DNA of 51,494 bases, taken from Leptotrichia sp. oral taxon 879 str. F0557. GTDB taxonomy: Bacteria > Fusobacteriota > Fusobacteriia > Fusobacteriales > Leptotrichiaceae. The DNA lies in the NCBI RefSeq assembly GCF_000469385.1, contig NZ_KI271332.1:38370-89863 (forward strand), written 5' to 3'. The notes under the pieces are model-generated. The model made no database searches, was not told the DNA's origin, and saw only the letters and a program-made list of their open reading frames with translations. The number at the start of each line of letters is the position of its first letter. The stretch's first letter is position 1. This document shows, in pieces, positions 46,735 to 50,151 of the stretch. Both the position numbers and the translations under genes were made by a program.

Positions 46735-47727
46735 ATGGATAGATTTGAAAAGATTTTTGATTATTTGCTGAAAGTTGAAGGCGGATATTCAGATGACAAA
46801 AATGACAAAGGGGGTAAAACTAAATTCGGAATTATAGAAGAAGAAGCAAGGGAGTTTGGATACAAAGGAAATATGCACGATTTAACAATAGATTTTGCAA
46901 AAAATATATATCTGAAAAAATATTACTTGGGAAATAAGCTGGATAAAGTTGTAAATGATAAAATGGCACTATCTATATGCGATTGGGCAGTTAATTCAGG
47001 AAGAAATGGAACAAAAAACGCACAGGTTGCTATAAACCAGCTTACAAATGCGAATCTCGATGTAGACGGAATAATCGGAAATAAAACATTGGAAGCGTTA
47101 AATTCAGTGGATCCTGAAAAATTTTTGGAAGTTTATCACAACTTGCAGAGAATTTATTACAAGGGAAAAGTTGAAGCTGACAGGACACAGGAAGGATTCT
47201 TGACAGGATGGCTGAACAGAGTTCAAAGAAAGGAGGAATATTTGAAAAATTGGGATAAGAAAAATGCGGTATCAACAGAAAGCAAAAAATATTCTTTTGC
47301 CCAGTCAAGTCTAGATAAAATGGAAAAAGTACATCCAAAGCTGGTTGAAGTTATGAAAACTGCAATTGAAAACAGTCCGTATGATTTTAGAATTACGAGT
47401 GGAGCAAGAACAACAGAAGAACAAAAAGCATTATTTGCGTTAGGAAGAACTAAACCAGGGGAAATTGTAACATATGCCAATGGTGTTACTTCAAAATCTA
47501 ATCATCAAATTAAAAGTGATGGATTTGGACATGCAGTTGATATATTTTTAACAGGAGTTTATGAAAACGGAAGTTATCGAAAATTTTCAGAACAGGAAGG
47601 TTACGATGTTAAAAGATTGAAAGATGTTGCAGATCATATCTTGGCAGTTGCAAAATCCAAAAACATTAACGTCGGATGGGGAGGAAACTGGAAAAAGAAA
47701 GATACGCCACATTTTGAACTGAAGTAA
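46735..47727 (+). CDS. Two-domain endolysin (GH108 muramidase + M15 peptidase)
   Basis: A 330-aa lysin. Domain 1 (about 1-175) is GH108: catalytic E15 in LKVEGGYSDDKNDKGGKTKF, then DGIIGNKTLEALN of its C-terminal peptidoglycan-binding part. Domain 2 (about 190-330) is M15-like: FRITSGARTTEEQKALF, SNHQIKSDGFGHAVDIF (H257, H266, D269) and the terminal H326 (PHFELK). It would cut both sugar chains and peptide stems. No signal peptide, so release needs a holin. Confidence 0.9.
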   Translation: MDRFEKIFDYLLKVEGGYSDDKNDKGGKTKFGIIEEEAREFGYKGNMHDLTIDFAKNIYLKKYYLGNKLDKVVNDKMALSICDWAVNSGRNGTKNAQVAINQLTNANLDVDGIIGNKTLEALNSVDPEKFLEVYHNLQRIYYKGKVEADRTQEGFLTGWLNRVQRKEEYLKNWDKKNAVSTESKKYSFAQSSLDKMEKVHPKLVEVMKTAIENSPYDFRITSGARTTEEQKALFALGRTKPGEIVTYANGVTSKSNHQIKSDGFGHAVDIFLTGVYENGSYRKFSEQEGYDVKRLKDVADHILAVAKSKNINVGWGGNWKKKDTPHFELK

Positions 47728-48570: not shown

Positions 48571-48871
48571 GAAGTTTGCAATTGTGATGTTTGCACTGAT
48601 ATTTTTAAATTCAGTAATCACATTGGAGTTGAGAGGATACCAAAGAAAACAGAATCTAAATCTGCTACGGAGCAAGCTGAAGAACGAAAGCAATAAAGAA
48701 ATATTTGACTCCATAGAAGAAAGGTCGAAGACAGAAGATTTAATACTCCTGATAGGCACAAACTTCATCGCTTTAATAACAACCGTCAGTTTCGATAGAT
48801 TCGGAACGTTTGAGGAAAGTGACGAAACTATAAAGGAAGATAAGAAAAAACTTGTAAAATTATTTTTGTAA
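48548..48871 (+). CDS. Membrane protein of the lysis module
   Basis: A 107-aa protein: an N-terminal helix (FAIVMFALIFLNSVITLEL), a charged coil (SKLKNESNKEIFDSIEERSK), and a second helix (LILLIGTNFIALITTVS). Overlaps the holin-like gene end. Could be an antiholin or spanin-like partner. Confidence 0.65.
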   Translation: MKMYHRSRKFAIVMFALIFLNSVITLELRGYQRKQNLNLLRSKLKNESNKEIFDSIEERSKTEDLILLIGTNFIALITTVSFDRFGTFEESDETIKEDKKKLVKLFL

Positions 48872-48878
48872 AATTTTG

Positions 48879-48905
48879 GATAGTCAGAAATGGCTATCTT
48901 TTTTT
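48879..48905 (+). terminator. Late operon terminator
   Basis: GATAGTCA-GAAA-TGGCTATC, 8-bp stem with a GNRA loop, then T7. Confidence 0.9.
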
Positions 48906-49078
48906 GTGTATAAAAAAATAGTTTCTCAAACGGCAATTTGAAAAACTATTATAAAATCTTGTAAAATAGAAGATTTTTGTTTAAATTTTTTCAATTAAAT
49001 TATAACAAAAAAACTTCTGTTTGTAAATAATTTTAAATATTTTTGCTAAAAAATTCTACTATTATTTATAAAAATGGG
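48906..49078. other. Non-coding AT-rich spacer
   Basis: Very AT-rich. Short mirrored stretches occur (TAGTTTCTCAAACGGCAATT, then TTGAAAAACTA), but I see no gene, tRNA or clear structure. Confidence 0.5.
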
Positions 49079-49107
49079 TTGACATTTATATAAAAATATA
49101 GTATAAT
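49079..49107 (+). promoter_or_regulatory. Consensus promoter at the right end
   Basis: TTGACA (49079-49084), 17 bp, TATAAT (49102-49107): a perfect sigma-70-type promoter, the best in the window. It drives the small right-end ORFs. Confidence 0.85.
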
Positions 49108-49135
49108 AATATCAAGATAGGAGGTGATAAGGATA

Positions 49136-49225
49136 ATGGCAAAGAAAAAAAGAGCAATAAAGGAAATCACAGTGGAAATTAGTTTAATTCCTTTAAAGCT
49201 CTATATCAAAATTGTTTTCAAGTAG
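49136..49225 (+). CDS. 29-aa peptide
   Basis: MAKKKRAIKEITVEISLIPL then KLYIKIVFK: basic head, short hydrophobic tail. AGGAGGTGA upstream behind a consensus promoter. The stop codon lies inside the structured element 49222-49251. Confidence 0.6.
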   Translation: MAKKKRAIKEITVEISLIPLKLYIKIVFK

Positions 49226-49251
49226 GCTCTGGGGCGAAAGCCCTATCCTAC
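49222..49251 (+). ncRNA. Structured RNA element with GNRA loop
   Basis: Outer stem GTAGG (49222-49226) / CCTAC (49247-49251), internal loop, inner stem GGGC-GAAA-GCCC (49232-49243). A GC-rich folded block between two tiny ORFs. Not a terminator (no T run). Confidence 0.55.
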
Positions 49252-49273
49252 AAAGCCATTATACCATAAATTT

Positions 49274-49408
49274 ATGAAAATTGGAAATACTAAAATAAAC
49301 TTTAGATTCAAAGTTGGCTGGAAAGAATCCAGTACGAAAGAAAGAATAATTGCCATATTAAGTTATTTAGCAATTGTGGCAATAATAATATATTTTTTTA
49401 TGAAATAG
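49274..49408 (+). CDS. 44-aa membrane peptide
   Basis: MKIGNTKINFRFKVGWKESS then a C-terminal membrane helix (RIIAILSYLAIVAIIIYFFM). No clear ribosome site directly upstream, so it may depend on the RNA fold. Resembles small toxic membrane peptides only in size and topology. Confidence 0.5.
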   Translation: MKIGNTKINFRFKVGWKESSTKERIIAILSYLAIVAIIIYFFMK

Positions 49409-49421
49409 GAGAAAAAAGAAA

Positions 49422-49631
49422 TTGGGAAAAGAAATAAAACCACGAGGGGTAAAAAAAGGAGAAACTCCTCAATGGAAAGTAGGAAGAAAGGCAACTGGAA
49501 GAAAAAGGGATAAATCATTGACCTTTAAATTAACCGAAGATGAAAAAGTATTTCTAATAAATAAACTAAAATTATCAAAAGAAAAAACTAATACAGATGC
49601 CTTACTAAAATTACTAGGATATGAAAAATAA
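49422..49631 (+). CDS. Small basic protein, RHH-like
   Basis: A 69-aa protein with a TTG start: basic head (KPRGVKKGETPQWKVGRKAT) and a strand-helix-helix (KSLTFKLTEDEKVFLINKLK) suggestive of ribbon-helix-helix DNA binding. AGGAG upstream. Maybe the regulator of this unit. Confidence 0.65.
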   Translation: MGKEIKPRGVKKGETPQWKVGRKATGRKRDKSLTFKLTEDEKVFLINKLKLSKEKTNTDALLKLLGYEK

Positions 49632-49657
49632 GAGCCACACAAGGCTCTTATTCTTTT
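49628..49657. terminator. Bidirectional terminator
   Basis: ATAAGAGCC-ACACAA-GGCTCTTAT, 9-bp stem with T-rich flank on the right; it contains the stop codons of the two convergent genes. Confidence 0.8.
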
Positions 49658-49800
49658 TCTTTGCTATCAATAGCTGTTTCAATTTTAACTTTCAGGATTT
49701 TTAAATCCTGAAGTTCCATTTCTTTCAGTTCTATAATTTTTATTTGTTTTAGATTTTCGATATCTTTTTCATTTAAGTTTTTGATTTTAAATTTTTTCAT
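49648..49800 (-). CDS. 50-aa coiled-coil protein
   Basis: MKKFKIKNLNEKDIENLKQI, then a Leu/Lys/Glu helix to the end. AAGGAGC before the ATG. Leftward, facing the 49422 gene. Unknown. Confidence 0.65.
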   Translation of the reverse strand: MKKFKIKNLNEKDIENLKQIKIIELKEMELQDLKILKVKIETAIDSKEKE

Positions 49801-50002
49801 TTATCGCTCCTTGATTTTTTAGTAAGGATTTGATAAAATAAATCTAGATTGCAAGAATTTATATTTTATTTGTACTATAAAAACTGGGGGCAAAAATGGG
49901 GCAAATTTTTATAAAACATTTAAAAAATGTCTTATAAACTAAAAATATGTAAAAAGAAATGCTTTAAAAATAAGTAAAAATAATAGGTGTAAAAATAATA
50001 AC
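49801..50002. other. Non-coding attR-side region
   Basis: AT-rich phage end. Holds the second GGGGCAAAAATGGGG (49887-49901). No gene seen; probably the integrase-binding arm of attP. Confidence 0.6.
49887..49901 (+). repeat. Terminal 15-bp repeat, candidate integrase arm site (right)
   Basis: GGGGCAAAAATGGGG, identical and in the same orientation as 1205-1219. Confidence 0.6.
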
Positions 50003-50020
50003 TATGCCTTGGATTAAAAA
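50003..50020 (+). other. attR core
   Basis: TATGCCTTGGATTAAAAA, then GTAA, the original end of ilvC displaced by about 48.9 kb. Confidence 0.93.
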
Positions 50021-50101
50021 GTAAAATTATCTCAAAACCTTTAAAAATAATTGTTTAAAGCGATTTATAAAATGGCAAAATCAGTAAAATATCAGTAAAT
50101 C

Positions 50102-50137
50102 ATAAAACACTCTAAATTAGGGTGTTTTATTTTTTTC
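50102..50137 (+). terminator. Original ilvC terminator
   Basis: ATAAAACAC / GTGTTTTAT stem with T7, about 80 bp behind the attR core. Before integration it would have followed the ilvC stop codon. Confidence 0.8.
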
Positions 50138-50151
50138 TAATTTATTCAGCG

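What the first reader, a model, noticed from the sequence alone, without database searches (positions are those of the whole stretch)
49079..49800. Right-end unit: consensus promoter, tiny ORFs and a GNRA-loop RNA
The strongest promoter in the window, next to attR, drives 29-, 44- and 69-aa ORFs with a compact folded RNA (49222-49251) between the first two. A facing 50-aa gene shares the terminator. Looks like a lysogen-expressed regulatory or small-toxin unit, of no known type.
Basis: partly seen in the sequence, partly recalled or inferred. Interest (0 to 1): 0.58.

Follow-up and report, generated by a model that had tools for sequence, protein, structure and literature searches.

The report
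Prophage toxin-like peptide with antisense RNA
Next to the right end of a Leptotrichia prophage sits a tiny-peptide gene that appears to be held in check by a small antisense RNA made from the opposite strand, with a likely DNA-binding repressor gene downstream: most probably an RNA-controlled toxin-antitoxin unit, of a kind that we did not find described in this bacterial phylum.

Summary
In detail: a unique 12/12 promoter, a 29-aa ORF, a stable hairpin, a 44-aa membrane ORF, a 69-aa ORF and a facing 50-aa gene sharing a two-way terminator. A minus-strand promoter (49287-49258) just past the hairpin and an intrinsic terminator embedded in the ORF1 coding sequence (49202-49141) define a ~110-nt antisense RNA. 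The 'GNRA RNA' is the complement of its 5' hairpin. The antisense RNA folds far better than shuffles, covaries among relatives, and its terminator is not explained by the ORF1 peptide. A combined scan finds this anatomy once in the window and never in 396 kb of the same genome. The same layout recurs in other Leptotrichiaceae prophages and on a Rep3/ParA contig, with unrelated hydrophobic or cationic ORF1 peptides. ORF3 is a probable ribbon-helix-helix protein; a dyad covers the promoter's -35 box here and in relatives. Best reading: a type I toxin-antitoxin unit (ORF1 toxin, antisense RNA antitoxin), organised like YonT/SR6/YoyJ of phage SPbeta, plus a likely DNA-binding regulator. Toxicity and expression are untested; the window peptide is only moderately hydrophobic. 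New variant of a known kind.

The parts
49065..49094 (.). Dyad (putative operator) TTTATAAAAATG-GGTTGA-CATTTATATAAA over the -35 box
   Evidence: 11/12 arm match, 10 of 500 shuffles as good; 12/12 in L019, L071_0, L123 (two promoters), L119_0
49079..49107 (+). Sense promoter TTGACA-17-TATAAT
   Evidence: only 12/12 site in the window
49136..49225 (+). ORF1, 29-aa cationic peptide MAKKKRAIKEITVEISLIPLKLYIKIVFK (proposed toxin)
   Evidence: relatives in L010, L019/L014, L123
49222..49251 (.). Hairpin: 3' UTR of ORF1 on the + strand; 5' stem-loop of the antisense RNA on the - strand
   Evidence: + strand z -3.83; - strand z -2.37
49258..49287 (-). Antisense promoter TTTCCA-18-TATAAT with extended -10 (TG)
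   Evidence: position-specific test 2 of 1000 shuffles as good
49141..49251 (-). Predicted antisense RNA, about 110 nt (proposed antitoxin); start inferred from the -10 box
   Evidence: -30.1 kcal/mol, z -3.82, 0 of 200 shuffles; covariation
49141..49202 (-). Intrinsic terminator of the antisense RNA (hairpin 49202-49151, then TTTTTTCTTT), inside ORF1
   Evidence: -16.4 kcal/mol; 1 of 200 and 3 of 600 synonymous recodings of ORF1 as good
49274..49408 (+). ORF2, 44-aa single-TM cationic peptide; no SD
   Evidence: family in L010, L019, L123 and alone beside a CRISPR array (L012)
49422..49631 (+). ORF3, 69-aa probable ribbon-helix-helix protein (TTG start)
   Evidence: NikA-like in 7 of 9 family members, below cut-off; N-terminally similar RHH neighbour in L119 passes PF01402; model not decisive
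49626..49653 (.). Two-way terminator shared with the facing gene
49648..49800 (-). Facing 50-aa ORF; adjacent, probably not part of the unit
   Evidence: also at L002 and (shortened) L003 without ORF1-3; also beside the unit in L019
50003..50020 (.). attR core

Best explanation
A type I toxin-antitoxin-like unit. The strong promoter makes an mRNA for ORF1 (toxin), ORF2 and ORF3. A weaker, extended -10 promoter on the other strand makes a ~110-nt two-hairpin RNA that starts at the foot of the 3'-UTR hairpin and ends at a terminator hidden in ORF1's lysine-rich start (the AAA codons are its U-run). In a lysogen this RNA pairs with the ORF1 body and the hairpin and blocks translation or exposes the mRNA to RNase III; if the prophage is lost, the RNA decays first and ORF1 peptide is made. 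ORF3, a probable RHH protein, binds the dyad over the -35 box and keeps the whole transcript low. Shown by sequence: promoters, terminators, conservation, covariation, dyad. Inferred: that both RNAs are made, that they pair, that ORF1 is toxic, that ORF3 binds the dyad.
For: Antisense promoter and terminator in the window. Joint scan (sense promoter, SD ORF of 18-60 aa, antisense promoter, antisense terminator in the ORF): 1 hit in the window, both strands; 0 in 396,138 bases of the same genome and 0 in their shuffles. Antisense RNA z -3.82 in the window, -4.30, -4.18, -1.48 in L010, L019, L013 and -3.62 in L123. Covariation: 7 of 22 pairs changed on both sides in 4 sequences (0 of 500 shuffles; slid structures at most 3); 12 of 22 in 5 sequences on a model-fitted alignment. 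Terminator beyond what the peptide demands: window 3/600, L064 1/600, L044 3/600. Antisense -10 at 26-34 nt after the ORF1 stop in 6 of 6 loci measured and at 39 nt in L123 (counted by eye output); position test window 2/1000, L064 1/1000, L044, L066 and L043 0/1000. Unrelated ORF1 peptides in the same frame of parts. One copy on a contig with Rep3 initiator and ParA-type genes (L066). Same place after lysis-type genes in window, L019, L072. Dyad over -35.
Against: No expression data. The window's ORF1 is only moderately hydrophobic (max KD17 1.56; L019 0.79), unlike classic type I toxins. The strict scan passes only 2 of 11 related loci listed; a relaxed scan adds L064, L044 and L047 but not L041, L050, L043. 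Position test weak in L047 (134/1000) and L123 (100/1000); recoding test not significant in L047 (93/600). No sign that the window hairpin masks the SD (353/500 shuffles as good). Only 9 of 30 loci with an ORF3-like match show the layout by eye, one of them the window itself. ORF1 matches no Pfam or NCBIfam family.
Confidence: 0.7

Rival explanations
1. Antisense-controlled regulator operon: ORF1 is a leader peptide and the antisense RNA tunes ORF2 and the RHH protein ORF3, as in plasmid copy control by an RHH protein plus antisense RNA (pMV158 CopG/RNAII, recalled).
For: RHH-like ORF3 and an antisense RNA in one operon; dyad over the promoter; ORF1 sequence is replaced freely between loci.
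Against: No Rep gene in the window unit; an RHH-like gene does not follow ORF2 directly in L066 and L123 while ORF1 plus antisense persist; ORF1 substitutes in other loci are toxin-like single-TM peptides.
Confidence: 0.15
2. acr-aca-like phage accessory locus: ORF1/ORF2 are anti-CRISPR or anti-defence peptides and ORF3 is the repressor (Aca-like).
For: The same promoter and dyad stand before an unnamed ~140-aa gene plus RHH gene in L119 and L123 and before L071 genes; a CRISPR spacer in G001 contains this promoter sequence (L107); ORF2 relatives stand alone at CRISPR loci (L011, L012).
Against: Explains neither the antisense RNA nor its terminator in ORF1; ORF1-3 and the facing gene have no PADLOC match of weight; Acr status of the neighbouring gene is a guess.
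Confidence: 0.08
3. ORF1 and ORF2 are one 91-aa protein made by stop-codon readthrough (TAG directly at the hairpin).
For: ORF1 and ORF2 are in frame with no other stop in the window and L010.
Against: L019 has TAA in the hairpin loop; in L123 ORF2 is out of frame with ORF1 (counted by eye output).
Confidence: 0.02
4. The hairpin is only an mRNA stabiliser or processing site and the minus-strand signals are chance in AT-rich DNA.
For: Promoter-like sites are common here (24 found, 16.5 expected).
Against: Joint scan, recoding test, covariation and recurrence.
Confidence: 0.05

Closest known systems
YonT/SR6/YoyJ, type I TA of Bacillus prophage SPbeta (PMC5848175; abstract and section 3.1 read)
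   Same: Prophage; polycistronic mRNA with a toxin ORF followed by a second small, poorly translated ORF; ~100-nt antisense RNA over the 3' part of the first gene
   Different: There the antisense RNA reaches into the second ORF; here it starts about 20 nt before ORF2 and ends inside ORF1. RHH gene and dyad are extra here. YonT peptide similarity was not tested.
AapA/IsoA of Helicobacter pylori (PMC6733600, PMC10537873; passages read)
   Same: 30-aa cationic amphipathic peptide and a cis antisense RNA of similar size; similar charge and hydrophobicity
   Different: IsoA promoter lies inside the ORF, here it lies beyond the ORF; no convincing sequence similarity (local score reached by 43 of 1000 shuffles); no SD-masking long-range pairing found in the window
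Ibs/Sib and RalR/RalA of E. coli (PMC4147584; passages read)
   Same: Complementarity in the coding region
   Different: Sib also covers the ribosome-binding site; here the antisense RNA ends after the first codons
Fst RNAI/RNAII (par of pAD1; PMC4147584 passages)
   Same: Small peptide, antisense partner; the L041 relative has a short antisense transcript with a 10-nt repeat of the ORF1 start region (by eye)
   Different: Window unit has no shared terminator between toxin and antitoxin RNA

Membership tests
Type I toxin-antitoxin (class) | Small toxin ORF, usually under 60 aa, membrane-active | tested here: inconclusive
   29 aa, net charge +6, max KD17 1.56, AapA1 scores 1.79; activity not testable
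Type I toxin-antitoxin (class) | Antisense RNA with its own promoter and end, overlapping the toxin mRNA | tested here: met
   In sequence only:
Type I toxin-antitoxin (class) | RNA neutralises toxicity | not testable with these tools
   needs expression tests
YonT/SR6/YoyJ | Antisense overlaps 3' part of ORF1 mRNA, second small ORF downstream | tested here: met
   coordinates
YonT/SR6/YoyJ | Antisense RNA overlaps the 5' end of ORF2 | tested here: not met
   -10 box at 49263-49258, ORF2 starts 49274
YonT/SR6/YoyJ | Toxin homologous to YonT | not tested
   no YonT sequence compared
AapA/IsoA | IsoA promoter inside the toxin ORF, RNA over the SD | tested here: not met
   antisense -10 box lies 32 nt beyond the stop
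AapA/IsoA | AapA-like peptide | tested here: not met
   43 of 1000 shuffles score as high; no PDB match at E 10
AapA/IsoA and hok-like | SD masked by a downstream anti-SD | tested here: not met
   window 353/500; but met in L041 1/500, L050 0/500, L047 2/500
RHH (CopG/NikA-like) for ORF3 | Profile match above cut-off | tested here: inconclusive
   7 of 9 members match NikA-like below cut-off; L119 neighbour passes PF01402; Foldseek best E 3.9
Rfam families | Gathering-score match | tested here: not met
   0 in the window

The most novel reading that the evidence does not exclude
A family of two-layer addiction cassettes on Fusobacteriota phages and plasmids: an antisense RNA whose terminator is written into the toxin's own first codons, plus an RHH repressor acting on a dyad that is shared with neighbouring accessory (perhaps anti-defence) operons, with the toxin peptide exchanged freely while the RNA architecture stays. 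Dyad-sharing would let the repressor switch the toxin and the accessory genes together on entry into a cell without the prophage.
Probability: 0.4. Interest if true: 0.65.

Novelty: new variant of a known kind. Interest (0 to 1): 0.55.

Why it matters
A 2021 review states that membrane-associated type I toxins had been described only in Proteobacteria and Firmicutes (PMC8309996, passage read). A conserved set in Leptotrichiaceae phages and a Rep3/ParA contig would extend the class to Fusobacteriota, add a protein regulator to an RNA-controlled unit, and give a searchable signature (terminator inside the toxin ORF on the other strand) that finds such units even where peptides share no sequence.

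Tried and rejected
Stop-codon readthrough of ORF1 into ORF2: in frame in the window and L010 only; L019 has a stop in the loop and L123 is out of frame. Rfam: no match. Phage records: no DNA match to 48850-50150. PHROGs/Pfam for the joined ORF1-ORF2, ORF3 and the facing gene: nothing above cut-off. Membership in AapA: shuffles score as high too often. SD masking by the hairpin: not in the window. Wider pattern GGCTCTGGGG..CCCYATCC: 7 viral stretches, of which 2 (L019 and the window's own record L020) are real and 5 (L021-L025) lie in unrelated GC-rich DNA by eye. RNA model R1 over 33 family genomes: 9 matches at E<=1 in 8 genomes; 4 already known, 1 (G011, E 0.157) real by its anatomy, 3 without any unit when read (L128, L130, L131), 1 not read (L132). 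In one search three further weak hits (L099, window 44297, L088; E 2.9-4.3) were not read. First pair count used a mistyped structure, one column off; one search is the corrected count. One search's measure missed the L064 terminator because its outermost base is unpaired; one search relaxed this for all four ORFs tested, and the result for L047 then became non-significant (93/600; it had been 8/200).

Genome-contig scan with ORF3 found no confirmed relative; with the L044-type ORF1 it found only Leptotrichia hongkongensis. Literature: (type I toxin-antitoxin with Leptotrichia, with Fusobacteriota) 0 papers; 3 and 6 papers, listings seen, one opened (PMC4147584: Fusobacteria there only for type III); 0. 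(type I toxin with ribbon-helix-helix, antisense RNA, prophage): 8 papers, listing only.

Full report
What is there. The window is a prophage (record IMGVR_UViG_2600255044_000001) in a Leptotrichia genome; the genus is inferred because G008, of the same genus as the window's genome, matches Leptotrichia hongkongensis NZ_AP019846.1 in length and place. It is inserted at the 3' end of an ORF that I recognise as ilvC (recalled label): an 18-bp repeat lies at 1127 and 50003, with the integrase beside attL. The reported unit lies between the lysis genes (endolysin at 46735) and attR. All reported features are present, and the promoter is the only 12/12 site of the window.

The other strand. One search already listed a minus-strand promoter, TTTCCA-18-TATAAT with TG, at 49287-49258. 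A scan for hairpins followed by T-runs found a terminator on the same strand at 49202-49151 with TTTTTTCTTT after it, inside ORF1. Together they define an RNA of about 110 nt from about 49251 to 49141. Folded, it has exactly two hairpins, -30.1 kcal/mol, z -3.82, none of 200 shuffles as good. The run of AAA codons behind MAKKK is the U-run of the terminator.

Is it chance? A joint scan demanded a sense promoter, an SD-led ORF of 18-60 aa, an antisense promoter and an antisense terminator in the ORF. It gave one hit in the window on both strands, the finding, none in 396,138 bases of the same genome and none in their shuffles. Thresholds were set after seeing the window, so this is a measure of rarity, not a blind test. 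With the same thresholds 2 of the 11 related loci scanned passed (L040, L066); without the sense-promoter demand and with looser cuts L064, L044 and L047 appeared, while L041, L050 and L043 did not. Synonymous recoding with the genome's codon usage gave an equal or better terminator in 1/200 and 3/600 cases for the window, 1/600 for L064, 3/600 for L044, 93/600 for L047, 4/200 for L040 and 4/200 for L066. An antisense promoter as good at 20-45 nt after the stop occurred in 2/1000 shuffles for the window, 20 for L040, 1 for L064, 0 for L044, L066 and L043, 134 for L047 and 100 for L123.

Relatives. The joined frame finds relatives in 5 of 60 genomes. L010 (G010) has the whole unit at 88% identity; L014/L019 (G010 and phage IMGVR_UViG_2788500453_000003) has the same three genes and hairpin core with diverged ORF1 and different terminator arms; L013 (G008) is a decayed copy whose ORF1 frame is broken early. 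On the antisense RNAs of these four, 89.8% of 88 cells pair and 7 of 22 pairs change on both sides, against 2.0 in shuffles (0 of 500 as high) and at most 3 in slid structures. A covariance model from them picked out a fifth unit in G011 (L123; E 0.157 for its genome) with ORF1 MAKKNKKMLEIKEVTVTINLFIFSITIKFSK, hairpin, antisense TGTTATAAT, a new pair of terminator arms, and an ORF2 of the same family. With it, 12 of 22 pairs change on both sides (that alignment was fitted to the model and leans towards it). The model also touched the antisense position of L066 weakly (E 0.29).

Unrelated peptides in the same frame of parts. Loci were collected by ORF3 similarity (24 of 98 phylum genomes). Of 30 such loci scanned, 9 show the layout by eye: L042 (the window), L040, L064, L044, L066, L043, L047, L041, L050; 21 do not. 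ORF1 is replaced by 49-50-aa peptides with a basic front and a hydrophobic tail (L044, L066), a 40-aa peptide (L047) or 25-28-aa single-TM peptides (L041, L050); L043 has no standard start codon for its reading frame (read by me). L044, L066 and L043 carry 12/12 antisense promoters. L041 and L050 form a subtype: a short antisense RNA ending near the ORF2 stop (by eye), and a hairpin arm that pairs with the SD far better than shuffles (1/500 and 0/500; L047 2/500); the window shows no such pairing (353/500), nor do L040, L064 or L044. L066 lies on a 39-kb contig with a Rep3 initiator and a ParA-type gene. L072 and L019 share the upstream lysis-type gene by eye but carry unrelated ORF1 peptides.

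The regulator. ORF3 is a probable ribbon-helix-helix protein: 7 of 9 members match NikA-like in Pfam, all below its cut-off, and an RHH gene of L119 with a similar N-terminus passes PF01402. A four-sequence AlphaFold model has two helices after an extended stretch (pLDDT 76.8, pTM 0.48), but no Foldseek match is significant (best E 3.9). A dyad covers the -35 box: 11/12 in the window (10 of 500 shuffles), 12/12 in L019, L071_0, both L123 promoters and L119_0, not in L041, L047 or L013. In L071 and L119/L123 a promoter with this dyad stands before the RHH gene's own operon, which makes autoregulation likely; binding is inferred.

Mechanism and limits. I read the unit as a type I toxin-antitoxin: ORF1 toxin, antisense RNA antitoxin acting on the body and 3' UTR of the mRNA, as in YonT/SR6 (PMC5848175), with RNase III decay or translation block as the likely step. 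ORF2 has no SD in window, L010, L019 and L123 and may, like YoyJ, be a weakly made second peptide; its region also holds the antisense promoter. The weakest link is toxicity: ORF1 here is cationic and only moderately hydrophobic. No expression data were available. The facing 50-aa gene also occurs apart from the unit and I leave it out.

Noticed in passing
L107 (G001:C1:880240-880260): A CRISPR array (repeat TTTACAATACAATTTGTGCTATTAAAAC) holds a spacer that contains the promoter sequence of the L112 phage locus: the host appears to target this promoter family.
   Followed up: partly
L011 (G004), L012 (G022): A relative of ORF2 (43 aa, single TM) stands alone, with its own promoter, between a CRISPR repeat stretch and a gene I recognise as cas6 (recalled label); 49% identical to ORF2.
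   Followed up: partly
L119, L123, L071: A ~140-aa gene (MTKNEIAK...) next to an RHH gene under the same dyad promoter looks like an acr-aca-type operon; no significant Pfam or NCBIfam match for the ~140-aa protein.
   Followed up: partly
window 49027-48915, minus strand: An 11/12 promoter with TG, then within 120 nt a strong hairpin with T-run: a possible separate small RNA; similar sequence in L002 at about 2000-2110.
   Followed up: no
window 49648-49800; L002, L003, L019: The facing 50-aa gene is a repeated phage gene: 88% DNA identity at C55, 85% and shortened at C76, also beside the unit in L019.
   Followed up: partly
L013 (G008:C1 near 241,000): Decayed copy of ORF1 plus hairpin without ORF2/ORF3 nearby; ORF1 frame is broken after 13 codons.
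   Followed up: partly
L041, L050: ORF1 SD region GTAGAGAGGAGG is complementary to the hairpin arm CCTCTCTAC, a classic long-range SD mask.
   Followed up: yes
L072 and L041 downstream flanks: Two different genera carry such a unit at a prophage end beside the same host membrane-protein gene, by eye: a shared insertion site.
   Followed up: no
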